Of a stretch of DNA of 30,489 nt, positions 1-30,262 are shown one piece after another. The first letter of the stretch is position 1; each line of letters starts with the position of its first letter. Both the position numbers and the translations under genes were made by a program. This DNA comes from Zoopage sp. CT-All (taxonomy: Eukaryota; Zoopagomycota; Zoopagomycetes; Zoopagales; Zoopagaceae). A model generated the notes under the pieces. The model saw only the letters and a program-made list of their open reading frames with translations, was not told where the DNA came from and did no database searches. Where the stretch lies: assembly GCA_004114245.1 (NCBI GenBank), contig QZWS01000070.1, forward strand, positions 1 through 30,489. The letters are read 5' to 3'.

Positions 1-1885
1 CCACCGAAACTTCGCTCGCCAGCTGCGAAAGTTGCCTGGCATATTCGTACTCCTGCCGCACAAGCTGCTTGGCAGATTCGGTTTCCAGCTTCTCAAGGTT
101 CTGGAAAGCTTCGATCGCCTTGTTTCCAAACTCGATGATATCTCTGATTAGCGTTCTGAAGGCTTGGTCTTTATTGGTCAAAAAATAATTCGACAGATAC
201 TCCAGGACATTCCTGGCAAGTATCTCGTTTTTAGTCGATATCCATTGAAGCAAAATCTTCACAATGGTCTTGTTAATAACACGTCGGGTCTCGCTGGCAT
301 CATGGGTGGTTTCGTTAGCGACCATTTCGAATTTCCCGAACTCTGCTGCGAGATACAGGTCGAGGATAAGAAAACCTGGGACAGTGTCGGAGGTGTACTG
401 CCGGGACTGCCAGTCAGTGCGCCTGTAGATCTTGGACGCGAACTCGCCGAGACAGGCGAGTGTCCACCCGAATGGCCCGAGTCCACGTTCTCCAATCATT
501 TTCAGGGTTAAATCAGGATGATGACAGCTTTGCTGTGCCACTTTGAACGAGGCGCTGGCGGTGCGCATCATCTCCTTAGCGGGCTGTTTTTTATGATAAT
601 TACGTACGTCCCACTCGCCCTTGACAATGAACCGCTCATCGTGGACAATCTTGCGCAGTGCGACAACAATACTTTTTTCCCATTCCTTCTTCTGAGACGG
701 GGTCATTCTAATGATATCGAACCAGAGTGGTTGCAGGTCCTTGGATGCAATTTCAATATCACCAATCATGCGTTCAGACTTGGAATGCTGCGTATTAGTG
801 GACCACTTGATCCCGACCGCGGTAAGGACAAAGAGAACCTTCCGCTTCGGATCGGTCATTTGAGCCGTGGAAAAGCGCGAATTAGCTACTTCACGTGAAT
901 GAAACCGTGCCAAGTGTTGGATCCTGCTGATCATGCGGGATTCCAATTCTCCCTGACATACGGTGGCGTACATCACTTGGAGAGCGGTGTGTCGCGGGGC
1001 AGAGAGCGCGGAAATGATTGCCCTATGCTTCGGATTGTCCGCTGAAATGAATGACGCGAGTCGCTTTGCTATTTTCTCATCAGCAATTGGCCTGATATGA
1101 AAGCTCGTATTTAGTGCCGTTCCGTCTACTTTGGAGAGCATTTTCGCGGATGCAATCCAATCAGCGATGGCTGACAGCCGAGATTGGTCGTCAGACTCAT
1201 TTGCCAATGATGGCATGGCAAGGGCGGCCCCAAATAGATTCTCCAAAGCAGCAGGAGACAAACGCAAGAGCCACGAAGAATCCACAGCAGGGGTATAAGG
1301 CGAGGCAGAAAATAATTGACGCACAGCGATGTCGGCGTCTTTGGGCTTATTGTCGAGATCGAGCGCCGAAAGCGAAACGTCTAACGGCGTCGTTTGCGAA
1401 CTCGGCGAAAGTTTGCGCTTCCTGCCGCTGAGTTGATCCGATGGTATATGTCCAGCTGACGGTATTAGGCCAACGACGCCTAAGGACGTGCTCAAGGACG
1501 TGCTCAAGGACGTGCTCGAAGACGCGCTCGAGAGCGTGCTCGAGGATGTGCTCGGTGACGCTAAAGAGACTAAGGATGGTGTACCACTGGAACCCAAGGA
1601 AGCGGCGGATGGCGAGCCGGACGAGCTATCCTGGGTCTGACGACCTGAATTCGGCATCGTCGGTGCACTCGAAAGCAAAGTCCCTCCCCGATAACCTTGC
1701 CGGGGGCTTGGCTCTGATGTCGTCAATTTTTTACTCTCAGGCATATGCAAATGCCGCAGTTTGTCTTCACTAAAGACGGTGGCTTTGCGTTGGCCATGCC
1801 ACGACGGCTTTCCGTTCTGGGATGACGCCGCAGCGCCAATGGCGACGACGACGAGCGCCAATAGGATGTGCACTGAGTTTTTCAT
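1..1885 (-). CDS. Partial secreted protein, unknown family (C-terminus off the left edge)
   Basis: An uninterrupted minus-strand reading frame runs from an ATG at 1883-1885 to the window edge, giving 628 codons with no stop. The N-terminus is a clear signal peptide: MKNS, then a hydrophobic run (VHILLALVVVAIGAAA) and a likely cut near residue 21. A low-complexity Ser/Thr-rich segment follows (roughly residues 80-135); part of it is encoded by a 12-base tandem repeat near 1488-1540. The rest is predicted mixed helical, with a charged, coiled-coil-like end rich in Glu, Lys and Gln. I recognise no catalytic motif. Being secreted is inferred from the signal peptide alone. The true C-terminus is unknown, so a transmembrane or anchor segment cannot be excluded. 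Its start lies 216 bases from the stop of the neighbouring hydrolase gene, which is on the same strand. Confidence 0.72.
   Translation of the reverse strand, partial: MKNSVHILLALVVVAIGAAASSQNGKPSWHGQRKATVFSEDKLRHLHMPESKKLTTSEPSPRQGYRGGTLLSSAPTMPNSGRQTQDSSSGSPSAASLGSSGTPSLVSLASPSTSSSTLSSASSSTSLSTSLSTSLGVVGLIPSAGHIPSDQLSGRKRKLSPSSQTTPLDVSLSALDLDNKPKDADIAVRQLFSASPYTPAVDSSWLLRLSPAALENLFGAALAMPSLANESDDQSRLSAIADWIASAKMLSKVDGTALNTSFHIRPIADEKIAKRLASFISADNPKHRAIISALSAPRHTALQVMYATVCQGELESRMISRIQHLARFHSREVANSRFSTAQMTDPKRKVLFVLTAVGIKWSTNTQHSKSERMIGDIEIASKDLQPLWFDIIRMTPSQKKEWEKSIVVALRKIVHDERFIVKGEWDVRNYHKKQPAKEMMRTASASFKVAQQSCHHPDLTLKMIGERGLGPFGWTLACLGEFASKIYRRTDWQSRQYTSDTVPGFLILDLYLAAEFGKFEMVANETTHDASETRRVINKTIVKILLQWISTKNEILARNVLEYLSNYFLTNKDQAFRTLIRDIIEFGNKAIEAFQNLEKLETESAKQLVRQEYEYARQLSQLASEVSV
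1488..1540. repeat. 12-base tandem repeat inside the secreted-protein gene
   Basis: The unit GACGTGCTCAAG and close variants recur in tandem, followed by more diverged units such as GACGCGCTCGAG. On the coding (minus) strand this gives the repeating Ser-Thr-Ser-Leu pattern. The unit length is a multiple of three, so copy-number change would keep the frame. Confidence 0.7.
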
Positions 1886-5954: not shown

Positions 5955-6845
5955 TCATCCAGACGCAGCTCCGGTTGCCGGACCAACAATTGGCAGAGCA
6001 TTGTCGGCGGGAGCGGAAGAAAGGTCGGTAGCACCGCTGCTGGGAGTAGCAACACTGTCGGTGTGAGAAGAAGCGCTGTCGGTGGGAGTAGCAGCGCTGT
6101 CGGTGGGAGAGGCAGCGCTATCGGCCCCAGCCGCACCGTCCATCCCCTTGCTCTTCTTATCCGGCGAGCCCGGGTCCACTGAAGCAGCCTGCACCATACC
6201 CCCATCGGCGGGCGGCGCCGACGCCTTTTCCCGGATCACCACCTTCACGCACTCCTTTCCGCCCATCGCGGCGGCCATGCCCTGCGCCTCGCTGCCGTTG
6301 TCCGTCAGCTTGGCCAGCCCATTTGGCTCGCTGCACCCCAGGCCAAACCCAATGACGAACCCGCCATCGACGTCCGGCGACTCGTCCCGCGCATTGGCCA
6401 TCTCGGGAAGGCCTTTGACCTGCATGATGTCCAGCACGAGGGCGACTTCGTCGGTGAAGATGGCGTAGGGGAGGTTGATGGTGCAGGCGAGGGAGGTTGG
6501 GGTGGCGCGGCAGTCGGGGTGGACAAGGCCGAGGTTGTTGAGGAGGTGGTAGGAGGTGATGCGCGACAGGATCTCGGGGATGACGACCTCGGGGCCAATG
6601 TCACCGTAGGAGGCGGGGTTGGCGCCGCCATCAACGGCGTCGCTGCTCTTGGTCGGCGCCACCAGGGCTGCAGGGTCCTGACCCGCATTGCCCGCACTGC
6701 CCGCATTGCCCGGGCGGATGGAGCCCACCGACAGCGTGGCAGGGCCGAGGAGCAGCGCCTGGGAGTGGATGGCCGCCGAGGCAGAGGCGAGGCTGGCGAA
6801 CGCGCACAGCACGAGCAGGCCCAGAGAAACGCGAGACGAAAGCAT
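5955..6845 (-). CDS. Secreted protein with four cysteines and a Thr/Ser/Ala repeat tail
   Basis: The best start is the ATG at 6843-6845, giving 296 aa. Longer versions of the same open frame run into upstream simple repeats and lack a signal sequence at their start. Residues 1-24 are a signal peptide (hydrophobic LGLLVLCAFASLASASA). The middle (about 65-200) contains four cysteines, in HPDCR, LACT, LGCSE and KECV, and looks folded. The tail is low complexity, with degenerate repeats of the type DSAATPT. I do not recognise the family. There is no hydrophobic C-terminus for a GPI anchor unless an unseen 3' exon exists. A cell-wall or extracellular protein is plausible. Confidence 0.68.
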   Translation of the reverse strand: MLSSRVSLGLLVLCAFASLASASAAIHSQALLLGPATLSVGSIRPGNAGSAGNAGQDPAALVAPTKSSDAVDGGANPASYGDIGPEVVIPEILSRITSYHLLNNLGLVHPDCRATPTSLACTINLPYAIFTDEVALVLDIMQVKGLPEMANARDESPDVDGGFVIGFGLGCSEPNGLAKLTDNGSEAQGMAAAMGGKECVKVVIREKASAPPADGGMVQAASVDPGSPDKKSKGMDGAAGADSAASPTDSAATPTDSASSHTDSVATPSSGATDLSSAPADNALPIVGPATGAASG

Positions 6846-6984
6846 TGGGGAGAAGGAAAGGATGATCAACAGAAAGAAGGAGGGTGCGGCAGAGATGCAG
6901 CGGCGGCAAGGAAAGTGGGCAGAAGAGTTGGCCGGGACGGTCACCGTTGTGAAAAAAGGTGGCAGCGGCAAGGTGGCTGGGACG

Positions 6985-7075
6985 TGGCAGATGCAGGTGT
7001 AGGTGTAGGTGCAGATGCAGGTGCAGGTACAGGAGTGGGTGCGGGAGTGGGTGCGGGAGTGGATGCGCAGGCATG
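6985..7075. repeat. GTAGGT/GCAGGT-type microsatellite and GGGAGTGGGTGC repeat
   Basis: Short tandem units (GTAGGT, GCAGGT, then GGGAGTGGGTGC) sit 140-230 bases upstream of the secreted-protein start, in its presumed promoter or 5' UTR. They end about 65 bases before the retroelement fragment begins. Confidence 0.75.
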
Positions 7076-7139
7076 GATAATGGATACACAGATACACAGG
7101 CGCGGGACACTGCACCGCAAGGCGTTTGGAGCATGTGCC

Positions 7140-8658
7140 CACCCTGTTTTTAGCTGATTTTAACCTTATCATCGAGCATCGCCCTGGACACGAGCACAAG
7201 AGGGCCGATGCGCTTTCGCGAAGATCAGAGTATGTCCCTCAGGAGGGGGATGAGCGCCTGTTGCAGCAACGCACCGCCCTACTCCGTTCCGATCAGTTTG
7301 TGGTAGGTGCCGTGGCCGTGTCAATCCAACCCAAGCCAAAGGACGTCATTTCTTCCCTGCCACTCTCCAACGAGGAACGCCTGCGGATTGTCCAAGAATG
7401 TCATGATAGTCCCGCCGCAGGCCACTATGGTCATCGCAAAACTCTTGAACTTGTTCGTCGCCTGGCTGAGTGGCCAGGACAAAGCAGCTTCGTCCGCCGC
7501 TACGTTCTTACCTGTGATGTTTGTGCCCGCGCCAAGTCTCCGCGTCACGCACCCTACGGGTTGTTACAACCACTGCCCATTCCTGAACGGCCCTGGGGTT
7601 CCATCTCCATAGACTTCATTGTAGATCTCCCCCGCTCCCGTGGATTCGACTCCATACTGGTCGTGGTCAATTGCCTGACCAAGATGGCGCACTTCACGCC
7701 CTGCCTCAAGTCTGCCACAAGCGCCGACATAGCAAAACTCATACTGGATAATGTGGTTCGTCTTCACGGGCTTCCAGATGACATCGTCTCCAATTGCGGT
7801 CCCCAGTTTGCATCCAAGTTCTGGTCCCGTCTGCTGGCTCTCCTTGGTACGCGAGTAAAGATGTCAACTGCCTACCACCCCCAAACAGACGGTCAGTCCG
7901 AACGAGTCAACCAAGTGTTAGAGCAGTACCTACGGTGCACGATCAATTACCGTCAAGATAACTGGTCAGATCTCTTGCCCCTCGCTGAATTCTCTTACAA
8001 CAATGCCATTCACGCTTTGACAGGACAAACTCCCTTCTTTGCCAATATGGGGCGTCATCCCCGTTTTAGCATCCTACCCCACAAACAAGCAACGGTCCCT
8101 GCCGCTGAAGACTACACCGTATGGATCTCTGGCGTGCAAGACAAACTCAGACAGCACCTCGTCAAGGCCCAAGAGCAGTACAAACACTTCGCCGACAAGC
8201 ACCGCTGCCCAGCGCCAATGTACAAACTGGGCAATCTTGTGTGGCTCCTTGCGCGGAATGTGAAAACTAGCCGCCCAAGCAAAAAGTTAGATTATAAGCG
8301 CCTTGGACCCTTCCCCATTGCCGAGCAAATCTCGCTGTTGGCCTACCGTCTAGCTCTTCCCGTGACCGTAGCTATTCACAATGTGTTCCATGTTTCCCTA
8401 ATCGAGCCGCATTTCACGTCCTCTATCCTGGGTCAGCGCACTCTGCCGCCTCCTCCCGTCTTTGTCCAAGGCAATGAAGAGTATGAAGTAAACAAAATAC
8501 TTGATTCGCGGGTACAGAGGAAACAACTACATTATCTTGTCTCGTGGAAAGGCTATGGGACAGGCAATCAATTCTGGGAACCAGTCTCCAACCTCGACAA
8601 CTGTCTTGATCTCATCCAAGCCTTCCATGCCATTCACCCGGATTGTCCTGTGCCTTGA
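7140..8658 (+). pseudogene. pol: Chromovirus pol fragment: RNase H end, integrase, chromodomain
   Basis: The frame is open with no internal stop but has no ATG at its start. The order is: RNase H end (IEHRPGHEHKRADALSRR); integrase zinc finger (His residues in CHDSPAAGH, then CDVC); the integrase core with first acid in SIDF, AYHPQTDGQSE carrying the Glu, and LTKMAHF; then a C-terminal chromodomain (YEVNKILD, LVSWKGY, FWEP). The second catalytic acid is lost: the family has a Ser-Asp-Arg-Gly here and this copy reads SNCG. The earlier Asp-Arg before LTKMAHF also reads Asn-Cys. Such an integrase should be inactive. The chromodomain looks complete and could still bind chromatin if expressed. Confidence 0.88.
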
Positions 8659-8799: not shown

Positions 8800-9768
8800 A
8801 TGAAAAAGAAAACCCTGGTCAGTGCACCCAAGACTAAACCGATGCTTCAGCTTCCAACATCCACTGCAAGCAAAGATGAACTTCTATCTAGACAGGTGCC
8901 TAAGCTGATCATTAAAGGGATACGCACCATTGTACCTGCCAGAAATCAGCCAAATCAGCCTAGCAATTCAGAAAAGAAGAGAAAGCATGGGGGAGATGGC
9001 AATAGTGAATTACCCAAGGAGCAGGTCGCCGAGCCTGATCAGAAGTGGGTTCAACTTGACAGCCACCCACCTGACAATCACCTTCCACATTCAAAGAATC
9101 AACCCACAGCCTTGTTGCTCACTAGCAAAGGACCTCTGAGGGTAGTGATTTTGCTTAGCAAACAGCAATCCTCTGGGACCAGCGCCATCCCTCAACCTGG
9201 ACTGACTCCTCTGCAAACTGATCCTTTATCTAAAAAGAGTTCGTCCAAGGCGAGTGCAACTGCTGCCAGAAACCAGTCAAATCAGCCCAACAGTCCAGCA
9301 AAGGGAAGAAAACGCGCGAGAAAAGGCAATGGCAAACCATCTAAAGTCCAAGATGCCAAGCGATTGTGACTTGACAATCGTCCATCTGACGATCACGCTC
9401 TACATCCGATGGAGCAACGTGCAGAGCAGCCAAATACCATCATCCATCAGCAGAGTAAGAAAAAGAAAGGCGATAAAGTGCAGCCTATGTCTAATATTTT
9501 GCGACGCAATTACAATTCACAATCAAAAGCTGATCAAAAAGTTATTTGTGCATTCCTAGATAAGGATGTCAATTGCAATATTTGTGGCGAAAACCTGAGG
9601 TTGGGTGGAGTTAAACATCATTTTGATATAAAGCATGCAAACTACCCTTCCAAGATGAAGTTCACATGCCCAGCCTGTGGCGTTACATCACCAGCAATCA
9701 CTTCCAATAGTCATTCCTCCTCACCAGGTCATGTAAAGGCATATCTTCAAAGTGTTGGCAAAGGCTGA
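8800..9768 (+). pseudogene. Broken double C2H2 zinc-finger gene (one in-frame stop)
   Basis: One reading frame runs from the ATG at 8800 to the stop at 9766-9768, interrupted by a single TGA at 9367-9369. The second half could start at the ATG at 9409. The first half is Lys/Pro/Gln-rich and contains a diverged internal duplication (about 8941-9110 and 9268-9430). The stop falls inside the second unit, where the first has a Gln. The C-terminal part carries two fingers: C-x2-C-x11-H-x4-H, then C-x2-C-x11-H-x5-H. This is the same spacing as in the two secreted proteins at 26.4-29.3 kb, so it is a family member. It lacks their signal peptide, and its start lies 15 bases after the LTR, which suggests the 5' end was cut off by the element. 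A working gene with read-through or an unseen intron is less likely. Confidence 0.6.
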
Positions 9769-17701: not shown

Positions 17702-20700
17702 ATGACATTCAGCACACCACCAACATCGTCAACGTCGCGCCGTTTTACCGGCAAATCATCCTATGCCGGCCGCGGAAATTACTCCAGTAGTCGGTTGGGC
17801 GACGACGGGACTGGCGCCGGCATGAATCCGTCTTCGCTTCCTGGCTGGTCATTATCGCCGAATGCGACGACCAACATCCGGTCCGGAAGGATTTCACTTC
17901 CGCCTCCCGTCGGATCGATTTACTCTGTTTCGTACTGTTTTATGCATCTAGTGCCTGATTCGACATTGACATCGGTAGACACGATGGCATGCTGGCTGGG
18001 AATGAGAATTGGTTCGTGCAGCCATCCTCGCAGCCGCCTTACCTCCATCACGCCACGGAGCACCGCATGCACGCTGTGGGAGATGAACATGTATTTGATG
18101 GCGTCGGAGGTAGTATCCTTCCGTCTCGGGGCCCTTTGGTTCCGAACAACAGCAGGTGACTGCGCCAGTATCTGCGTGCTTATCTGCGTATAGACGCGCT
18201 GTATTGTGCTTCTGATAGCGCATATATGGGGCAAGAGGCGATGAACTTTGGATATGAGGACATTGCACAGGATGAATATTATCCTTTGTCGGTGCATTCT
18301 CAGCAGGGATATGTTCCCCAGCAACCAGCCCAACCATTAGTGTCCGGCACGTACCAACATCAAGTAGCTATTGCCCGACTTTTATTATTCTATACTGACT
18401 ATCACTAAGCATTTGTGGGAGCAGCCCGGTATGATCACTGCCGCTGCCGCCCAGATCCACGAGCCATCTCGTCCGCGCAACTGCGCCGTTTCTGTACCAA
18501 GGAAGACACGATTTCGAGCGTACAATGATAACGGCACCGTCAACCAGAGTATCGCACAAATTTACTCAGCGCTTAGTTTGATTGTTTTAAATAGTCTCTC
18601 ATGGGACAGGACATCTTCCTGTGTCGCCACTTAGCCGCACAAGTCATCATGAGGAAATAGTCCGCGATATCCCGCTTCGTCCAATATCTGAACTGCGCAT
18701 GACATATATTTATATTGTCCGCTTATTTGAGGCTGACCTAGCACTTCAATTTCGGAGCCTTTATACGTATCCAGTTTTCAATAAGATCCAATCAGACTGT
18801 TTCGACTTGGTACGTCACGTTTATTACTCCAAGCGTCCAAGACATTGCCTCGATAGGCGTTTCACTCCTCCGCCAACCTTGTTGTCAGTGGTATCGTCTT
18901 TCGCATTGCTTATGTGCTGCTTGGTTGACGTCATCTAGCCCCAACTGGTGCTGGCAAGACGGTCATTATGGAGCTCGCTCTCCTCGGCTTGTTTGCTCGC
19001 GAGAATGTTCACTCTGCTAAAGTAATTTACATGGCACCCACGAAGGTATGCCGCACAATTTCTGAATCGCGGCTGCGCTGACAATGCCTAGGCCTTGTGC
19101 TCTGAGCGCCAGCGTGACTGGAGCAACCGCCTCGCCACCACTGGCATTAAATGTTCGTCTATGACCGTTACCACCGCGTTTTTACCAACACTTCCTTTGT
19201 AGGTCGTGAATTAACTGGCGATAGCGACTACTCAACTCTCTATGAAATTCGCGACGTGCAAATTATGTATATCGATCATACTCTATATCGTTGCCTACAC
19301 CTCGCAATCTAGTATTACAACTCCAGAGAAATGGGACTCGGTGACGCGTCGATGGAAAGATCAACGTAAACTTATGGACTTGATTCGTCTCTTTATGGTA
19401 TTTACATCTACCGTATCTGATTTGCTGGATAAGACCTTGGTCAGATCGACGAAGTGCATATGCTCAACGAAAGACGCGGTTCGACGCTTGAGGCTGTCGT
19501 CAGTCGTATGAGAACCGTGGGCACGCCAATTCGCTTCCTCGCCATCTCTGCTACTGTTCCAAATATTGACGACGTTGCTACCTGGTTAACGCATGGCCAA
19601 GCAGATGAATATAGTCAATGCTACCTTGCGAGCACTGGTGCAAGCGACGCAGCCGTAGTCAAATCTTATGGCGAAGCATATCGCCCAGTGCGACTTCAGC
19701 GTATTGTATATGCGTACCCGAAGAGCGCCCATGCCAATGTGTTTATCTTCGATCGTAGTCTAGACCAGTAGTGTGTATTTTCGCCAGCGGGTATGAGAGC
19801 TTGACCACCTTTAGCCTCGCCGAATTAGTCGATCGTCATTCGGATGGGAAGCCAACCCTTGTGGTATGACGGAGTTGCAATGTTGGTTTTATCACGTTTC
19901 CTAGTTCTGCAACACGCGCAAGTCCGCCGAACAAGCTTGTTCAGCGTTGCTCAAAGACATCCGTTGGCGTCGCTCAATTGGATATTTGCCGAACAACGAG
20001 GCTCTCTATACGTGAGCATGAAATTTTGCCAAATTGCTAACCTCATGGATGGTTACAGTGCGCGGAACGCTGCTTTCCAAGACAGGAAACTTCAGGGCAC
20101 TGCTGTTTGCTCACTTAACTCCTTTTCTAACAGATCAGTAGAGCTCGCGACCTATGGTATTGGGTTTCACCATGCAGGGCTCAAGCCTGAAGATCGTCGC
20201 ATCACAGAACAACTCTTTATCCAAGGTGTCATCCAAGTCGCATGTGAGTTTCATATAGAATTGCTGTATCGACAATGCCGACACTGCTTCAGGCACCACT
20301 AGCACCCTGGCCGTCGGCGTTAATCTTCCTGCGCATCTTGTTATTGTTAAATCGACATCTCAATACGCAAATGGCGGGTACAGCGAGTACTCTGAATTGG
20401 ATATTCTTCAAATGATCGGCCGTGCTGGTGCGTTTGTAAGCTTTATACGGTTACATTATGGGCGTTAGGTCGGCCACAATTCGATGACTCTGGTGTTGCT
20501 TTGATCATGACAAGCACAGATATGAAAACCAAGTATGAATTGCTAGCATCGGGCTCCGAGGTCATCGAAAGCAGCCTCCATGAGAGCCTCATTGAGCATC
20601 TGAATTCGGAGACGTGTAATGGCAGCATTACCAGCATTGAGAGCGCCATTAATTGGTAATGATAACTGCGGATGCTCAATTCTACAATCAACTTCATTCT

Positions 20701-23205
20701 GACAGGCTTAAATCTACCTTCCTATGGGTACGGGTCCGCAGCAATCCTTCGCGCTATCGACTCTCCCATGGACTATCCGCGGTTTCCCCTGAGAAGCAAA
20801 TGGAAGAGCTCTGTCTTCGCGACATGCAGCTTCTTGACCAACACGGAATGATCAAACTAGATATGGGTAGTAAGAAGCTCAGTGGAACAGGTACAGTTAT
20901 ACTTGAATTTAACAATAAATATCTCGATAGACGTTGGTTCCGCGATGGCAAAATACTACGTTGCGTTTGAGACGATGGTTAAATTTGTCAATGTGCAAGA
21001 CACGTCGTTGAAAGGACTTGTAAGTAAAAGTATCCTGCTGCCCGCACCCGAGTCCGCTTTATAGCTTGAAGTCGTCGCCATGGCCGAGGAATTCGCAGAT
21101 ATTCGCTTTAATTCGGGCGACAAAGGCGCACTTAAAGAAGCGTCAAAGAACACTGGTATCCGCTTTCCGGTGAAGGGTTTATTCAAAGACGCATGGCAAA
21201 AAGTGTTCATTATGATTCAAGTTTGACACCCAGTTTATGGCAATCATGTCGAGTTCTCTAGTGCACGCTCGCTGGAATTGATTTTACACCAAAAAGCGCC
21301 AGCGCCGCCGTTGAAATGCAAGCAGCTTATGTTGGATGCTGGTCAGCCGTCGCTAACGCAGCAATAGGATGACTGTTATGCGAACGAGTGCGCGCATCGC
21401 GTCCTGTCTTGTTGAATGCTTGGCTCTTCGTGAAAATGTGCATTCCTTGAGAAACGCGGTCGAAATGTGAATAATGAGCGTAGCTCGATATATCTAACGT
21501 CATTTAGTCATCGATGTTTAAAGTTAAAGATGTGGGAAAATTCGACATTGATGCTTAGGCAGATTGACCGCATTGGTACGATGCTGCGATATTCTATGCT
21601 TGCCAACTGCCTCTGAATTAGGCTTGCAGTACGCTACCAGTCTTTCCAACAAGGGCATAACCAGCTTTGAGAAGCTAAAAGCCACTGACCCACGTCAGCT
21701 TGAAGCGGTAGCAGCCGTCAAGCAGCGCGCTTTAATCACCAGTGTTAGATGCTGAATCGCAACCCGCCTTTTGGCGATCTCCTTCACGACAATGTCCGTC
21801 GCCTTCCCAAGATTACAGCTACAGTGAACAAGGGAAAGGTTACCAGTAATGCCGTCCAATTTTCAATTGCGTTATCGCTGTCCAATGCGGATGCCGCCAT
21901 CAATAAAGGAAATCTGCTGTGCATGGCTTCACTGATCGTGGGCGTTCAGAATAGGCTTGTCGATTTTCGTCGACTAAGGTTGCTTTCTCACTTGGCAAAT
22001 ATGCTAACACACCTTTAGTCTACGTAAAGTTCGGGATGGAATCACGGTCCGTGTTTCACCAGAATTTGACCGACCCAAGCAACCCTTGAGCATCTTTGTC
22101 ATATGCGAAGATTATCGTATGATTCAGCCATGGCAAATCTATTTTTAACATTGACAGACGGGCTTGATGTGCTTGAGGAGTATGACCCATGCCTGCCCGC
22201 AAGCGCCTTCCCATCGCATATTCCGCATCAGCAAGATATTGCCAAGGCGGGCAGGCTATCGCGTGAGGGACAATCCTCACCAATTGGTAGATGCTTGAGC
22301 GCCGTCCAGAGGCAGTCGCTGCGGACGACAAGTTGACTTATCGCGGTACTTGGCATTGCTCTGCCGATGCTTGCTTACCAGTGCATTAGAGCGCAAATCC
22401 CCTGATCTGAACCCCAGCTCTGATGGGTTGTGGCTTTTCGAAGATCTGCCCATCCCGGGTAAGCTTCATGCCGCGCCAGTCTCCAGTATTCCAGAAAGCG
22501 TATTTAGAGCCCCCAGTCCCTATTCCCATGTCATTTCACTATGATACTGCCAATGCTCAGTCGTGTAATCATCGCTGCAAAAATCGCACCGCGTGCAAGC
22601 ACACCTGCTGCAAGGTTGGAGTCTTGAATAAGACTGCAAAGCGCCGTGCCGGTCAAAGAAAGCGTGACGATGCTACTGCTCTTGATGCTTTCAAGATGAG
22701 CAGTTCCACTCCAACGTCTGCACCAAAAAAAGCTCGGCAGGACGAAGTATTTTTTTCTGGTATCCCCGGAGGTATTCATGCATGCACACCGCAGAGTCGT
22801 CGGCGTATGTCTACGCTGGATCGATCTGTGCTTCCTATTGCTCCGCTTGGCTGTCCATTCGATGACGCCTTGGATGATATTGCTTCTCAAACCGGCAGCT
22901 ACACTGCCGAGTTGGACTCCGCCATGTTCTCGACGCCATTTAATCAGCAACCTCGGCCGCCGGCAGATATCTCTACTGCGGAAGTATTACTTGGTATGGG
23001 TCAGCATTTCGCGACTTGGGTGCAGCCAACAGCCGATGTCATTGGCGCTGATGACGTTCCCATGCGTGCCGCAAAGGCAAATGGCAATGAACCGATCTAT
23101 ATCAGTTGCGACGAAGACGAGGAGTGGCAGTATGACGACCCACGAGCTGGAGAGCTCTACGACTTGTCCAACATGCAGTACGATATGGATTTGTATGAGG
23201 CTTAG
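17702..23205 (+). CDS. HFM1: Mer3/HFM1 meiotic DNA helicase, 31 exons
   Basis: Exons: 17702-17931, 17979-18155, 18219-18363, 18410-18548, 18595-18696, 18742-18809, 18857-18890, 18939-19045, 19092-19152, 19203-19266, 19313-19397, 19445-19770, 19815-19863, 19905-20011, 20059-20096, 20142-20243, 20293-20427, 20469-20655, 20706-20890, 20931-21019, 21065-21220, 21262-21317, 21368-21466, 21508-21575, 21622-21707, 21749-21978, 22019-22116, 22158-22262, 22310-22345, 22390-22458, 22508-23205. All phases close, giving 1376 aa. Motifs in order: motif [10 protein letters not shown] split by an intron, DEVH box [38 protein letters not shown], then a winged-helix and Sec63-like region, and the HFM1-type Cys/His cluster [20 protein letters not shown], followed by an acidic tail. 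The family unwinds DNA in meiotic recombination and stabilises crossover intermediates (ZMM group). Introns are 40-63 bases; three appear to be GC-AG. Exons 28-30 are the least certain. Confidence 0.88.
18697..18741 (+). other. GC-AG intron in Mer3 (45 nt, frame-preserving)
   Basis: Borders are GCATGA and GACCTAG, with branch-like GGCTGACC. Removing it joins PISEL to [11 protein letters not shown] with only PLQ between, as in relatives. It has no stop and is a multiple of three, so retention would only insert 15 residues. Confidence 0.6.
20097..20141 (+). other. GC-AG intron in Mer3 (45 nt, frame-preserving)
   Basis: Borders are GCACTG and CAGTAG. Removing it gives [19 protein letters not shown], which fits the family well; keeping it inserts 15 polar residues with no stop. 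There is no GT donor at this point. Confidence 0.55.
21318..21367 (+). other. GC-AG intron in Mer3 (50 nt)
   Basis: Borders are GCAAGC, close to the ideal GC-donor sequence, and GCAATAG, with branch TCGCTAAC. Using it joins SAAVEM to [20 protein letters not shown] in phase; reading through hits a stop. Confidence 0.7.
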
Positions 23206-24421: not shown

Positions 24422-25456
24422 CTACATTCTATTCAGCAGGCGCATAGCCATCTCAAAACTACCAAAGGCATTACAAGCAACGCTAAAGAAGCAGGTTGTA
24501 TATACCATAAGAAGGTGGCAGCGTTGGCTGGGGCAGCACGCAACATACACGGCGCCAAGCCCCGGAAGAATCCGGTTACGCCCTCGCTAGAATATATCTT
24601 TCGCGCACAGTCCATCATGGACCGATACTTACGGTCAGAGGACGTAAATCCATCTGTCTGTAATTTTGACTTGATCACATCCAGCGGGAATATAGTCAGC
24701 CACAACGAGTATCCGGCTACCGCACCGTTCATGCACACCCTCCACGTCTCAAGCTTTTCTCTTGGTTTGCGTAAATGCGCCATGTCGCGCTGAATCAGGT
24801 GCTCGTATACCATGAAATACATGCCGAATCCACCAAACTCTCTGAGCATGGTCACTCCCTGACCCTTGTATATCCCTGGAATGCCATGCGCGGAGTACAC
24901 TTTGCTCGCAAGGTCGAGTGGGCCAGCATAGGGCAGAGCACCGCCAATGGCTGTCGCAGACTGGACCTGGAGGCGCGTTCGAATGTGCTCAACGGGCCCG
25001 GCAACAAACGAGTTGGCCACTCCAGCTACTGCACCCGATATGAACAGCTGAGGAAGAGTTAGGCCAGCACCAGCGGCGCTGTCTTTCCTTAGGGCGTTGG
25101 TGTGCGTAAAGTGCCGCTTCATGAACTCGAGGACGCCAAATTGAATGCTGACACAGAGCCCGACACCAAGCAGTGGCGTAGTCGTGCCCTTATAGAACGC
25201 GCCGAGGCCCTCGGCTGCGGTCTTTCGTGCACAACCCAGCATCCCGGAGTATTGTGGCGGTTGGCCGGGCGGCGGCACGGCCTGCGCCTGCAACCTAACT
25301 TTAATCGTGTCGAACGGCTTAGTACGAGTCAGAGCGTGAGCATAACAAGATCCTCGGGCATACCTGGCCTGTGAGGACCTGGGCAATGCCACCGACGGTT
25401 CCCGCAGTCAAGTCCTTGGCCGTGCGTGCAAAGCCTTCATCGTGACGCGCGTCCAT
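24422..25456 (-). CDS. Mitochondrial inner-membrane carrier, YMC-like, three exons
   Basis: Model: complement(24422..24458, 24506..25317, 25364..25456), 313 aa. The introns are 47 bases (GTATAT to GGTAG) and 46 bases (GTATGC to ACTAAG). Three carrier repeats show the signatures PFDTIKVRLQ, PVEHIRTRLQ and PLDVIKSKLQ. The second repeat has Glu instead of Asp, and MLREFGGFGMYF follows, which together resemble the Ymc1/Ymc2 branch and related basic amino acid or acylcarnitine carriers. The transported substrate cannot be fixed from sequence. The C-terminal 12-residue exon (FEMAMRLLNRM) replaces an unspliced tail that would read into junk. It is divergent with the methyltransferase, with 33 bases between ATGs. 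A decayed relative lies at 29.6-30.3 kb. Confidence 0.9.
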
Positions 25457-26376: not shown

Positions 26377-27366
26377 TTACTTCTCACTGCTCAGTGCCTT
26401 CTCAACTGCCTTCATATGCATCACTTGGTAATAATGCTCAATGACTCTCTTGCTATCTCCTGACCACGAACAAGTACTGCATTTGATTGTCTCTGTAGCT
26501 ATCTGGTCAGAATGTTTCAACCTGTAATGCTTTACAAGGTCTTCTACTGATGTAGTGAAGTTGCACTTGCTGCACTTGACAGGCTGCTTCATATACGCGA
26601 AATAAGGCTTCCTTTCCTCGTCTGGTAAATCAAGAATACGTTTTCTGCGTTCAGATCTTTTAGTACTGTCTTCACGCCGCCCCTTGTGCATTGTGCGGTT
26701 CTTTACAATGCCACGCGGTTGTTTAGCTTTCTTGCTGTGGGTAATACCAGGGTTGTGCTTTGCCAAATACTGGTTAGGATCCATGTAATCCAAAGAAGGT
26801 GGGTAAGGACTTTGGATGGAAGCAAGAGATGGATGATTCCCCGGAACGTGAGACATATAGTTAGGAGACGGAGGAGTCCATAGATTGGGATTGGAAGCAT
26901 GTAGTTGAATCAATGGTGAATAAGTGGGGCCAAGAGGCGGATAATTCCTCAGAGTTTGAGACACATAGTTAGTAAGAGGCAGGTGAGTATGCTGAATGGG
27001 AGCAGGCTGCTGTGGATTCGATGGCAAAATATTGGGGCCAAAAGATGCATGATTCCCCGAGGGTTGAACAGCATAATTTGAAGGAGGTGGGGGAGTACGC
27101 TGAATGGGAGCAGGCTGCTGTGGATTCGATGGCAAATAAGGGGGGCCAAAAGACGGATAATACCCCAGGGTTTGAGACACATAATTTGAAGGAACTTGTC
27201 TCAGAAATGGGAGGATATTTGACGCTTTTGCAACAGGCAGACGATACCGGTCAAGTTCTTCCTCTGGTTTGTCCCGCGAATCCGATGGCGAGCTTGCCCT
27301 GACGCTTACTCTTCCGACAGCAATGGCAGCAAATACTGCAATGCAGATTGTATGGCGAATTCTCAT
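26377..27366 (-). CDS. Secreted protein with Pro-rich repeats, basic segment and two C2H2 fingers (copy A)
   Basis: 329 aa, single exon, ATG at 27364-27366. Signal peptide: MRIRHTICIAVFAAIAVGRV, likely cut near VRA-SSP. Residues 60-192 are about four tandem units of about 36 residues, rich in Pro, Asn, Gln and Tyr, with the core NYVSQTLGYYPSFGP. Residues about 211-247 are strongly basic (SKKAKQPRGIVKNR, RSERRKRI), like a nuclear-localisation stretch. Two zinc fingers follow: Cys265, Cys268, His280, His285 and Cys296, Cys299, His311, His317. I know of no named family with this arrangement. It may be an exported effector-like protein or a metal- or DNA-binding extracellular protein; both are inference. 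Paralogous to copy B at 28.5-29.3 kb. Confidence 0.82.
   Translation of the reverse strand: MRIRHTICIAVFAAIAVGRVSVRASSPSDSRDKPEEELDRYRLPVAKASNILPFLRQVPSNYVSQTLGYYPSFGPPYLPSNPQQPAPIQRTPPPPSNYAVQPSGNHASFGPNILPSNPQQPAPIQHTHLPLTNYVSQTLRNYPPLGPTYSPLIQLHASNPNLWTPPSPNYMSHVPGNHPSLASIQSPYPPSLDYMDPNQYLAKHNPGITHSKKAKQPRGIVKNRTMHKGRREDSTKRSERRKRILDLPDEERKPYFAYMKQPVKCSKCNFTTSVEDLVKHYRLKHSDQIATETIKCSTCSWSGDSKRVIEHYYQVMHMKAVEKALSSEK
26850..27190. repeat. 108-base tandem repeats encoding the 36-residue Pro-rich units
   Basis: Units aligned at about 27082-27189 and 26974-27081 are very similar (shared GGGAGCAGGCTGCTGTGGAT and nearby sequence). The next two units toward 26790 are more diverged. Unit length is a multiple of three, so changes in number keep the frame. 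Confidence 0.75.
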
Positions 27367-27440
27367 GGCTTATTGGATGCTTTTGTGATTTCTGTGGTGA
27401 ATGAGGGCGTGTTCAAGCAGGCCGCGTGGTTGATATTGGG
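27300..27440. repeat. Signal-peptide plus upstream module, near-identical to 29278-29418
   Basis: The segment holding the first ~22 codons and about 75 bases upstream matches the start of copy B with only a few differences. Just inside the mature region the two genes diverge strongly. Confidence 0.8.
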
Positions 27441-27654
27441 GTGCAAAAAATGCCACACTGACGGCTGCCCATATGCTTCAGTCCAAATGCTCAGCATCTT
27501 TTTCCTGCTGGTGGAAAATGCAGAGTCAGCCATGCTAAAGATCAACATAATATCAGCTATGACATGTCACTGACCATGGTCACCTTTAATGTGCTAGACA
27601 TTCCAAAGTGTGTTGCAGAATTGGTGCAATCTTGAGCAGTTAGTAAATAGCCCA

Positions 27655-27735
27655 TCCAGGCAAGGAATTCAATGAACCTAGGGATAGTGCCTACATTTCT
27701 ACCAGCATTCAATCTGTTTTATTCTTAATTGCATT
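27655..27735 (-). pseudogene. Ghost of a third copy: 3' flank without a coding region
   Basis: This stretch (ATGAACCTAGGGATAG, then TGCCTACATTTC and ACCAGCATTCAATCTG) resembles the 3' flank of copy A (about 26325-26380) and of copy B (about 28495-28550). No finger coding sequence follows it. It is best read as the remains of a lost family member. Confidence 0.5.
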
Positions 27736-27786
27736 TGTGTGGTTTATGTTGGAAAGGTTTACTCTCACTAGGTATCAGGGGTTGGG

Positions 27787-27962
27787 TGTGTAGACTGCTG
27801 AAAGAAAGATTATCTCATTTCTTGCACTATCACTGTCACAGTCTCTTTTCTTCTTATCTTGTCAACACCAGTGTTGACCATAATACACCCTATTAACATC
27901 CTTCCCTTCTTTATACTACCTCCTCCTATTGCCTTTCTCCTCCCCTAGAGTCGGTCATCACA
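27787..27962. repeat. Solo LTR-like fragment between the paralogues
   Basis: It begins TGTGTAG, ends TCATCACA and holds the near-palindrome GTCAACACCAGTGTTGAC (27861-27878) followed by ATAATACA. The LTR at 8670-8785 has the same layout (palindrome, then ATACATA). The orientation and edges are approximate. Confidence 0.4.
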
Positions 27963-28540
27963 ATCATTGTGCCACTTGCCCTCAATCCAACAATTTACTT
28001 TGTAGTAATGGTATTTAGCTATTCTGAATTCCACTATGTTGTGGTATGGAAAGTCAGTTAAAGAGTAGTCTCTTTTTCTAATATCCAAATATATGGAGAG
28101 TTCTGTCAATCCTAATCCCCCTTGACACTACCCATGATACCTTACCCATCCACACACTACAACTGCTATGGAAAATTTACTCTTTACTACAAACACATAA
28201 CAATAGTATACTATTAGCCTATATAATATCATAAATATCAAATAAGGCAATTAATTAAGTGAATGGAAACAGGAAATACAATGATCAAAAGTAGTAGATA
28301 GCAGAGTGGATGGTAGCAATCATTTCAACAAAAGAACAAACAGATAAACAACCATCCTATCCTATTAAAGTGCTTATTAAGCATGATGAAGTGCATGCAT
28401 GAATTATAGCAAAATAGGATGGCAGCGATTACAAAACATATGCAAGGGCACAATTTGGTAGAGGTACTCTTGAGTAAATTGCTCCTACAGGTAAGAATAT
28501 GAACCTAAGTATAGGTGCCTACATTCCACCAGCATCCAGC
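27963..28540. other. AT-rich intergenic stretch with no gene seen
   Basis: I see no long open frame, RNA gene or clear repeat here. It is rich in short A/T runs and holds the 3' flank of copy B at its right end. Several stretches look like old, worn repeat DNA. Confidence 0.5.
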
Positions 28541-29344
28541 TTATTTTGGCTGTTTTTTCAACCGCCTCAATGCCGCCTCAACTGCCTTGACATGTTTCAG
28601 TATGCAATAATGACGCTGGATTAATCCGTGTTCCACTTGGTGATGACAATAGTCGCACTCAATTGACTCTTTAGGACTCTGGCCTTTATGCTTCTTCTCA
28701 TAATGCGCTGGAAGGTCTTCAAATGCCAGACTGGAGTCGCACTTGCTGCACGTGACAGGCTGCTCCATATACTTGAAATAAGGCTTGCTTTCCTTAATTG
28801 GCAGTTTATCGATTCTTTTTTTGCGCGTATCCCTTAAAACATTGGACTTGCGTTGCGTCTTGTTTTTCTCACTTGACTTAACAATGCCACGCGATTGTTT
28901 AACTCGACGATTGGTGCGGATCTTCCATGGCGCAACAACATGATTGGGGCTTGTCAATGTATTTCTGCGGCCAGCAATGCCTGATTGTTCTGCATCAATA
29001 GAATTGGCAGCAACAATAGCAAGGTCATGAATTGTTGATGGTACTCCTAAATTTTGAGCCACAAAGGTAGGAGGCGAAGGAGCATGTTTGAGATTATGAG
29101 CAGGCTGCAGTGAATGCGATGGCGAAACATTGAAGGCAAAAGGCGGATGATTCTCCGGGGTTTGAGCCACATGAGCTGGAGGAGCATATCTCAGGGATTC
29201 AAGGGCTTCTGATGCTTCTGCTTCTGCAGCAGACAGTTGACGCCGGTTGGGCCTTTCATCTGCTGGGGAGCTTGCCCTGACGCTTACTCTTCCGGCAGCA
29301 ATGGCAGCAAATACTGCAATGCATATTGTATGGCGAATTCTCAT
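28541..29344 (-). CDS. Secreted protein with basic segment and two C2H2 fingers (copy B)
   Basis: 267 aa, single exon, ATG at 29342-29344. The signal peptide is identical to that of copy A over the first 16 residues. The Pro-rich part is short and worn: about one and a half units (HVAQTPENHPPFAFN, TFVAQNLG). A basic stretch (about 143-180: TNRRVKQSRGIVKSSEK, RKSNVLRDTRKKRIDKLP) aligns with copy A. Fingers: Cys199, Cys202, His214, His219 and Cys230, Cys233, His245, His251, followed by the shared VKAVEAAL helix. The mature proteins are only loosely similar outside the RGIVK, KPYF-YM-QPV and finger blocks. Function unknown; possibly an effector-like secreted protein. Confidence 0.8.
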   Translation of the reverse strand: MRIRHTICIAVFAAIAAGRVSVRASSPADERPNRRQLSAAEAEASEALESLRYAPPAHVAQTPENHPPFAFNVSPSHSLQPAHNLKHAPSPPTFVAQNLGVPSTIHDLAIVAANSIDAEQSGIAGRRNTLTSPNHVVAPWKIRTNRRVKQSRGIVKSSEKNKTQRKSNVLRDTRKKRIDKLPIKESKPYFKYMEQPVTCSKCDSSLAFEDLPAHYEKKHKGQSPKESIECDYCHHQVEHGLIQRHYCILKHVKAVEAALRRLKKQPK

Positions 29345-29418
29345 GGCCTATTGGATGCTTTTGTGATTTCTGTGGTGAATGAGGGCGTGTTCAAGCAGGC
29401 TGCGTGGTTGATTCTGGG
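29278..29418. repeat. Signal-peptide plus upstream module (second copy)
   Basis: The partner of 27300-27440. By eye about 5 to 7 differences were seen over about 140 bases, including silent or conservative changes in the signal peptide. Confidence 0.8.
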
Positions 29419-29574
29419 CGGTGCAAAATGTTACCACGTGGACTACCGGCATTCAACAGTGTATTTGCTTCATTCTTAATTGCGCAAAGTGCGTTCATTA
29501 CTCTGCACATACATTTGAAGTTATGTATGAGGTACAGTAAACTATGTACTCATTTAACTGCTGTTTTGCTGTCA

Positions 29575-30262
29575 TCAGTGCATGACTCTCATCACCAGCT
29601 CAAAGCTATTCCAGATATATGTCAGAGTGATGAACACGCAAAGAACCTTATTACCAGACAAAGGTCGCAGTGTTGGTTGGTGCAGCACAAACCAGGACTG
29701 GCATCAATCCTTGATAAAATCCTCGAAATCCCTGAGTTTGGTATGTTTGCTTGACACAGTCCAGGACAGAGTGGTAGCAACATTTGGAGCCAGCCCAGCC
29801 ATCTGTTTGTATTTTGGACTTGATCACATCCTAGATTCAGATATGAATCAAAACAAATACTAAACATACTATTGGTAGGATGTTGAACCAGAGGCAGTAG
29901 CTAGCAAGCGCACCATAAGCTGCTACCCGTCAGGGTGCAATTTCCTGTTGCTTGAGTCCATGTATGCACATTTCCTGCCACACTAGCCACTTGTATGACA
30001 TGAAGTAGATACCATAGCCAAAGAACTCATGTGTCATGGTGATGCTAAGGCCACGGTATATGCCAGCAATTCCATAGTTCCAATAGATGTTGCAAATGGC
30101 TGAAATAGGCCTGGAATATGGCCCAGCACAGCCTTGTTGTATTTGAAGACCTTTAAACTGTGCCTTTAAATATTAGCATGCATAATTTACTTACAAGAAC
30201 AAATATGTTCAATTGGTAAATTCAATGCCTTCAGTGGGATTACCCCATAAGTGTTACGCCTG
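29575..30262 (-). pseudogene. Decayed second mitochondrial carrier (YMC/CRC-like)
   Basis: The C-terminal 60 percent of a carrier is readable as exons at about 29575-29605, 29655-29830, 29870-30150 and 30195-30262. The introns are 49, 39 and 44 bases, and the last one (nearest the C-terminus) sits exactly where the intact carrier has its own. Recognisable parts are PIEH followed by CLQIQ, AGIYRGLSITMTHEFFGYGI, DVIKSKIQTDG, GFRGFYQGLMP and AAPTNTATF. The break is a TGA in the loop before the third repeat, and the first repeat is missing. Key arginines are lost (PIEHICSC for PIEHIRxR; THE for LRE). Expression as a carrier is very unlikely. Confidence 0.75.

What the first reader, a model, noticed from the sequence alone, without database searches (positions are those of the whole stretch)
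26377..29344. Lineage-specific family of secreted proteins carrying two C2H2 fingers and an NLS-like stretch
Copies A and B, plus the broken gene at 8800-9768, share exactly the same double-finger spacing: C-x2-C-x11-H-x4-H, then C-x2-C-x11-H-x5-H, with a helix after it. Copies A and B add a signal peptide and a strongly basic segment. Export together with nuclear-type domains is unusual, and is known from effectors of plant- and animal-associated microbes, so these may be exported proteins that reach a nucleus. That role is inference; the arrangement is seen directly.
Basis: partly seen in the sequence, partly recalled or inferred. Interest (0 to 1): 0.85.

Follow-up and report, generated by a model that had tools for sequence, protein, structure and literature searches.

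The report
Fungal family of exported zinc-finger proteins
An unidentified early-branching fungus carries dozens of related genes whose proteins look built for export yet end in paired zinc fingers whose outer surface is changing fast, which is what one would expect of proteins that act inside a host, though that role is not shown.

Summary
Copies A and B are intact single-frame genes: export signal, long disordered Pro/Gln-rich linker, basic stretch, two C2H2 fingers. The assembly (8.6 Mb) holds about 55 loci or fragments of the family on 39 of 419 contigs (grouped by hand). All 24 uninterrupted frames open with a hydrophobic signal-like start and have no second membrane segment. Of 67 profile hits 55 keep all eight metal ligands; the other 12 are fragments or damaged copies. 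AlphaFold2 folds both fingers as beta-beta-alpha.

No relative scored in searches of a 5.8-billion-protein set; A, B and the third copy reach no Pfam cut-off. Best reading: a lineage-specific, diversifying candidate effector family. Export is well supported, host targeting inferred, nuclear action unproven (12 of 24 match a simple NLS pattern). "Chytrid" is not established. Secreted C2H2 effectors are known, so this is a new variant.

The parts
26377..27366 (-). Copy A, complete single-exon gene, 329 aa
27289..27366 (-). Copy A signal-peptide-like start (residues 1-26); 10-residue core mean hydropathy 3.02, highest elsewhere 1.01
26575..26799 (-). Copy A basic segment (75 residues before the first Cys, 27% K+R)
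26416..26574 (-). Copy A paired C2H2 fingers
27423..27429 (-). CCACGCG, degenerate form of the family's upstream CACGTG box, 63 nt before copy A's start codon
28541..29344 (-). Copy B, complete single-exon gene, 267 aa
29267..29344 (-). Copy B signal-peptide-like start (residues 1-26); core 3.02, highest elsewhere 1.50
28751..28975 (-). Copy B basic segment (29% K+R)
28592..28750 (-). Copy B paired C2H2 fingers, predicted beta-beta-alpha twice
29435..29440 (-). CACGTG box 96 nt before copy B's start codon (a degenerate CCACGCA lies at 29401-29407, the place that matches copy A's)
8800..9768 (+). Broken third copy: two open pieces (8800-9369 and 9370-9768), matching the gene in L037 (contig C365); no signal peptide found
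9574..9732 (+). Paired fingers of the broken copy

Best explanation
A lineage-specific, expanded family of exported zinc-finger proteins, most likely effectors. Proposed working: (1) transcription from a shared short promoter with a CACGTG-type box [shown as a sequence pattern in part of the family; regulation inferred]; (2) entry into the secretory pathway by a cleaved N-terminal signal [strong sequence support, not assayed]; (3) release and uptake by another cell [inferred]; (4) the disordered Pro/Gln linker and basic stretch deliver the C-terminal module to its site, probably the nucleus [inferred]; (5) the paired C2H2 fingers, zinc-bound, hold a nucleic acid or a protein through one face of their helices [fold predicted, ligand unknown]; (6) that face diversifies between paralogues while metal ligands and core are kept [shown by codon analysis, moderate strength], as expected if copies follow different or moving targets. 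My estimates: export 0.85; action on another organism 0.6; nuclear nucleic-acid binding 0.35.
For: Own-genome searches with six members give about 55 loci or fragments on 39 of 419 contigs, grouped by hand (one more start seen). 24 of 24 intact frames start with a hydrophobic core (mean 2.46-3.73), have no other membrane segment and no KDEL-type end; 17 of 24 have V/I-x-A-S at the expected place. Of the neighbours, Per1, a secretory-pathway protein, scores 2.82 and MKT1 0.97. 55 of 67 profile hits keep all eight ligands; ligand losses are seen only among the other 12, which are fragments or damaged. Both fingers are predicted beta-beta-alpha. CACGTG lies within 100 nt upstream of 16 of 35 starts; 35 sites occur in all 149,672 letters held, these included; the window has 3 against 8.8 expected. 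Pooled NG86 omega on 11 close pairs: helix face 2.31 (bootstrap 1.27-4.00), other exposed 0.64, ligands 0. ML: face 2.12, other exposed 1.57, core 0.71, ligands 0.001, face against other p 0.00085; positions -1, 3, 6: 2.54 against 1.62, p 0.00015. 24 of 46 clusters lie within 1 kb of a contig end, 4.9 expected. No relatives scored in the protein set, whereas MKT1 from the same window found 28 proteins, the 23 named ones all fungal.
Confidence: 0.5

Rival explanations
1. Exported proteins whose fingers bind proteins rather than nucleic acid: short-spaced fingers like those of TRAF, Sina and Di19-type proteins hold a host or partner protein, in cytoplasm or at the cell interface; the basic stretch is a binding surface, not an NLS.
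For: Copy A's best Pfam match is Sina_ZnF (E 8e-5, below cut-off) and zf-Di19 matches 3 of 15 members weakly. Foldseek ranks Cep104, TRAF6 and zf-TRAF fingers beside CTCF. The hottest sites include helix positions after the first His (18 and 19 of finger 1), outside the classical base-reading set.
Against: All matches are below cut-off or weak. Classical positions -1, 3, 6 are nonetheless enriched, and a basic flank suits nucleic acid, as in the GAGA-type arrangement described for MoHTR1/2 (passages of PMC7672089).
Confidence: 0.25
2. Not exported to a host: the start is an organelle signal (mitochondrial or endomembrane) and the family works inside the fungus.
For: Many starts hold Arg and no acid before the core (as printed), and the organism and its lifestyle are unknown. 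Nothing here measures secretion.
Against: 24 of 24 have a 10-residue core of high hydropathy, without charges as far as I read them, and 17 of 24 have V/I-x-A-S after it, which fits a secretory signal better than an amphipathic mitochondrial one. An expanded, fast-diversifying family is unusual for a housekeeping role.
Confidence: 0.13
3. A repeat-driven, largely neutral gene family: copies spread by duplication near repeats or chromosome ends and decay, with no strong function.
For: Gene-wide omega between paralogues is 0.41-1.60 in 11 pairs; many copies are broken or end at contig ends; the broken copy lies next to a Ty3-type fragment.
Against: Neutral decay would not keep all eight ligands in 55 of 67 hits (the profile favours such hits), a core omega of 0.7 with a helix face of about 2, nor a box shared by divergent members. 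24 long frames are uninterrupted.
Confidence: 0.1

Closest known systems
MoHTR1 and MoHTR2, nuclear effectors of Magnaporthe oryzae (PMC7672089, passages seen)
   Same: Signal peptide, basic residues around a C2H2 finger domain; shown there to reach host nuclei
   Different: Two selected proteins compared there with the single-finger GAGA factor, against a family of dozens with paired x11 fingers, one or two modules per intact frame; no host, nuclear or DNA-binding evidence here; sequence relation not tested directly
MiISE5 of the nematode Meloidogyne incognita (PMC5940819, passages seen)
   Same: Signal peptide, predicted NLS and two C2H2 fingers in a 435-residue protein
   Different: From a nematode; NLS near the N-terminus; its discussion weighs non-nuclear sites for zinc-finger proteins; sequence relation not tested directly
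RAYH candidate effectors of Synchytrium endobioticum (PMC6572847 and PMC12503489, passages seen)
   Same: Large species-specific secreted family, placement near scaffold ends, conserved gene architecture with variable proteins, NLS over-represented
   Different: Defined by the RAYH motif in a helix bundle; 0 of 24 intact members here contain RAYH. 'C2H2' occurs in neither main text
Vertebrate poly-zinc-finger genes (PMC2604467, passages seen)
   Same: Lineage-specific expansion with positive selection concentrated at helix positions -1, 3 and 6
   Different: Long arrays, often with KRAB, SCAN or BTB domains; intracellular and without signal peptide (recalled). Here the enrichment at those positions is weaker and other helix sites are as fast
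TRAF / Sina / Di19 / Cep104-type fingers
   Same: Short-spaced C2H2-like fingers in pairs or arrays (spacing recalled)
   Different: Pfam matches below curated cut-off for copy A, fold matches weak

Membership tests
Secreted C2H2 nuclear effectors (MoHTR type, a functional class) | N-terminal secretion signal, no membrane anchor or ER retention | tested here: met
   24 of 24 intact frames by hydropathy, no second hydrophobic segment, no KDEL-type end; heuristic, no dedicated predictor was available; GPI anchors not tested
Secreted C2H2 nuclear effectors (MoHTR type, a functional class) | C2H2 zinc-finger fold | tested here: met
   Eight ligands in 55 of 67 profile hits; beta-beta-alpha twice, block-mean pLDDT 78-89 over the fingers of copy B
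Secreted C2H2 nuclear effectors (MoHTR type, a functional class) | Nuclear localisation signal | tested here: inconclusive
   12 of 24 match simple patterns, 4.9 expected from shuffles
Secreted C2H2 nuclear effectors (MoHTR type, a functional class) | Found in host nuclei, binds DNA, expressed in infection | not testable with these tools
   No host, expression or binding data
Classical C2H2 domain families of Pfam | Score above the curated cut-off | tested here: not met
   Copies A, B and the 9370-9768 piece have no family above cut-off; for the other members one search shows E-values only
TRAF / Sina / Di19-type fingers | Score above the curated cut-off | tested here: not met
   Copy A: Sina_ZnF 23.4 bits against 32, zf-Di19 13.6 against 27.5
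TRAF / Sina / Di19-type fingers | Shared fold beyond a common small finger | tested here: inconclusive
RAYH candidate effectors of S. endobioticum | RAYH motif | tested here: not met
   0 of 24 intact members
Crinkler-type effectors | Conserved N-terminal translocation domain | not tested
   Considered from memory only

The most novel reading that the evidence does not exclude
A repertoire of dozens of exported, co-regulated zinc-finger proteins in which one or two finger pairs are mounted on a disordered carrier and diversify at their reading face, so that the fungus in effect sends a changing set of DNA- or RNA-reading regulators into its host: an independent, fungal counterpart of exported transcription regulators.
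Probability: 0.25. Interest if true: 0.88.

Novelty: new variant of a known kind. Interest (0 to 1): 0.68.

Why it matters
Secreted zinc-finger effectors are known from single proteins. A whole family in an early-branching fungus, with an upstream box shared by many members and fast change on the finger helices, makes 'does an exported protein read a host genome?' a testable question: the positions that should change target choice are already marked by evolution. It also gives a signature (start, box, module) for finding such genes in related, poorly known fungi.

Tried and rejected
Relatives elsewhere: single-sequence search with copy B (1470 candidates, none at E 0.001) and profile search with 15 members (the 7991 candidates sharing most words were scored, none at E 0.01; a capped list). 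The positive control MKT1 found 28 proteins among 7995 scored, so early-diverging fungi are represented, though the best is only 38% identical.

PDB by sequence: profile A1 best match CTCF finger 1x6h, E 8.5e-4, a generic finger similarity. A fold that does not appear in the second-look list is not excluded.

Organism: the MKT1 tree leaves the query in an open polytomy. Two flagellar families gave nothing, but nothing rang in the controls either, so this says nothing.

Selection: IQ-TREE codon runs printed no omega, so I wrote a codon likelihood, with branch lengths taken in proportion from IQ-TREE. The N-terminal block gave omega 3.0, probably misalignment, and was left out of later fits. A parsimony count gave 1.39 and 1.40 for the two helix faces against 0.91 for all non-ligand finger sites. 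The 36 modules used were picked by a pattern that requires the ligands, so their zero replacement changes are partly by construction; some of the 36 come from genes cut by contig edges or stops (for example L017). Searches give the less biased ligand count.

Controls that failed: the kinase, carrier and 2-1873 rows do not begin at a true start and the methyltransferase row is out of frame; only Per1 and MKT1 are usable. The contig-end expectation ignores cluster length and is slightly low.

Literature: in seven searches no listed title or abstract start describes this family; 'secreted zinc finger' with effector and fungal gave 0 papers. The lists are capped and subscription papers are mostly not held.

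Full report
WHAT IS THERE. Copies A (26377-27366) and B (28541-29344), both on the minus strand, are open single-exon genes in an AT-richer part of the window (GC 0.39-0.46 in the four 26-30 kb bins, 0.46-0.66 in the other bins). Their first 26 residues differ by one amino-acid change and their 5' flank is alike (84% over 212 nt), but they share only 44% of aligned residues overall. Omega is 0.15 for the signal segment (three changes in all), 1.06 for the linker, 0.41 for the basic part, 0.84 for the finger module. AlphaFold2 on full-length B, with A as the only other row, leaves residues 17-164 without confidence and folds the finger part. On the C-terminal part alone, with three window rows, mean pLDDT is 72.5 with two beta-beta-alpha units.

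HOW BIG THE FAMILY IS. Own-genome searches with six members, plus one start seen, give matches that I grouped by hand into 46 clusters (listed in the script) holding about 55 genes or fragments on 39 of 419 contigs. The tool says such counts are lower bounds. Re-reading the fetched loci with a profile gives 67 module hits: 55 are complete with eight ligands (49 with C-x2-C or C-x3-C in finger 1, six with C-x4-C), and 12 are not. Those 12 are ten pieces cut by a contig end or a broken frame and two modules in L044, a locus with in-frame stops. Ligand losses inside the stretch covered are seen only among the 12 (L044 twice, and by eye L034:571-810 and L048). 24 frames hold a signal-like start and at least one complete module without interruption; one (L038) ends at a contig edge. 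Of these 24, 20 have one complete module and 4 have two. One locus (L017) has three, separated by stop codons.

EXPORT. In 24 of 24 the first 30 residues hold a 10-residue core of mean hydropathy 2.46-3.73; the highest value elsewhere in any of them is 1.89. None has a second membrane-like segment or a KDEL-type end, and 17 of 24 have V/I-x-A-S at the expected place; a much looser site pattern fits all 24. Per1, a secretory-pathway protein in the same window, scores 2.82; MKT1 0.97. The other rows of that control are not usable. No dedicated predictor was available, so this is a heuristic.

NUCLEAR FEATURES. The 75 residues before the first Cys are richer in K+R than the linker in 24 of 24, in L037 only just. 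Simple NLS patterns occur in 12 of 24 against 4.9 expected. Both are compatible with an NLS and equally with a nucleic-acid-binding flank. Cysteines outside the recognised finger span number 0 to 8 per mature protein (in L038 the figure includes a cut second module), so a 'cysteines only in the fingers' rule does not hold for all members.

SHARED UPSTREAM BOX. CACGTG lies 38-96 nt before the start codon in 16 of 35 signal-peptide starts examined, including divergent members (L022, L027, L031, L035, L037); 19 lack it, some of them with a degenerate form. All 149,672 letters held contain 35 sites, these included. In the window CACGTG is rarer than expected (3 against 8.8); one of the three lies before B. 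A and B carry degenerate forms 63 nt upstream. The starts are paralogues, so the binomial value printed is not an honest probability.

SELECTION. Gene-wide omega runs from 0.41 to 1.60 in 11 pairs. On 36 modules with identical spacing I tested 12 helix-face sites (positions -1, 1, 2, 3, 5, 6 of both fingers, set before the first count). Parsimony counts give 1.39 and 1.40 for the two faces against 0.91 for non-ligand finger sites. 11 disjoint close pairs give omega 0 for ligands, 0.95 for non-ligand finger sites and 2.31 for the face (bootstrap 1.27-4.00; 24 of 5000 random 12-site sets reach it). With three distance cut-offs the face value is 7.0, 2.3 and 1.8. A fixed-site codon likelihood gives face 2.12, other exposed 1.57, core 0.71, ligands 0.001 (at its bound); face against other p 0.00085. 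Against this, 18 of 200 random sets reach the face value, 8 of 100 in a 24-module subfamily, and the effect sits in finger 2 (3.20) more than finger 1 (1.46). Positions -1, 3, 6 give 2.54 against 1.62 (p 0.00015; 11 of 300 random sets). Sites H-2, H-1, H+2, H+3, chosen after seeing the data, give 3.82. The ordering ligands < core < other exposed < helix face holds in the likelihood fits; in the pairwise counts core and other exposed change places between cut-offs. Absolute values are model-dependent. Vertebrate poly-zinc-finger genes show concentration at -1, 3, 6 (PMC2604467, passages).

THE BROKEN COPY. The pieces at 8800-9369 and 9370-9768 match the gene in L037 (36% and 63% identity in two stretches). 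No signal peptide was found upstream, where a Ty3-type integrase-chromodomain fragment ends at 8658.

WHAT IT IS NOT. No relative scored in the protein set, no Pfam family above cut-off for A, B or the third piece, no RAYH motif in 24 members. Weak resemblances split between DNA-binding CTCF fingers and TRAF/Cep104-type fingers, with JAZ and spliceosomal fingers in the second look, so the ligand of the fingers is open.

ORGANISM. The 23 named MKT1 matches are all fungal, best Calcarisporiella at 38%; the tree does not place the query. 'Chytrid' is neither supported nor excluded.

VERDICT. A real and striking family: exported by sequence, paired-finger, in good part with a shared upstream box, diversifying on the finger helices. 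Effector is the best explanation (0.5); host-nuclear nucleic-acid binding remains a hypothesis (0.35). In kind it joins known secreted C2H2 effectors; in scale and site-focused change it is a new variant.

Noticed in passing
window 2-1885, minus strand: Another secreted-looking orphan (MKNSVHILLALVVVAIGAAASSQ...), Ser-rich then helical-looking, open at the window edge; no second copy in the genome (query without the first four residues) and no Pfam family above cut-off.
   Followed up: partly
window 5955-7238, minus strand: A further signal-peptide-like orphan (MLSSRVSLGLLVLCAFASLASASA...) with Thr/Asp/Ser/Ala repeats near its end; no Pfam match.
   Followed up: partly
window 7081-8658, plus strand: 3' part of a Ty3-type element (H2C2 zinc domain, SH3, chromodomain; integrase core just below cut-off) abutting the broken copy; nine other matches in the genome.
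   Followed up: partly
window 19433-20970, plus strand: Pieces of what looks by eye like one helicase gene over several frames, with a DEAD-box match (E 4.9e-5, 23.6 bits, below its cut-off of 26) only on 19433-19771; introns or decay not resolved.
   Followed up: no
L026 (contig C315): A family member with a long Ala-Asn/Gln-His repeat tract and two modules in one 721-residue frame.
   Followed up: no
39 contigs of the genome: 24 of 46 family clusters lie within 1 kb of a contig end, 4.9 expected: repeats that break the assembly, or chromosome ends.
   Followed up: partly
window 24650-24682 and 29799-29831: A 33-nt near-repeat (91%) between the mitochondrial carrier gene and the region beyond copy B, perhaps a carrier gene remnant.
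   Followed up: no
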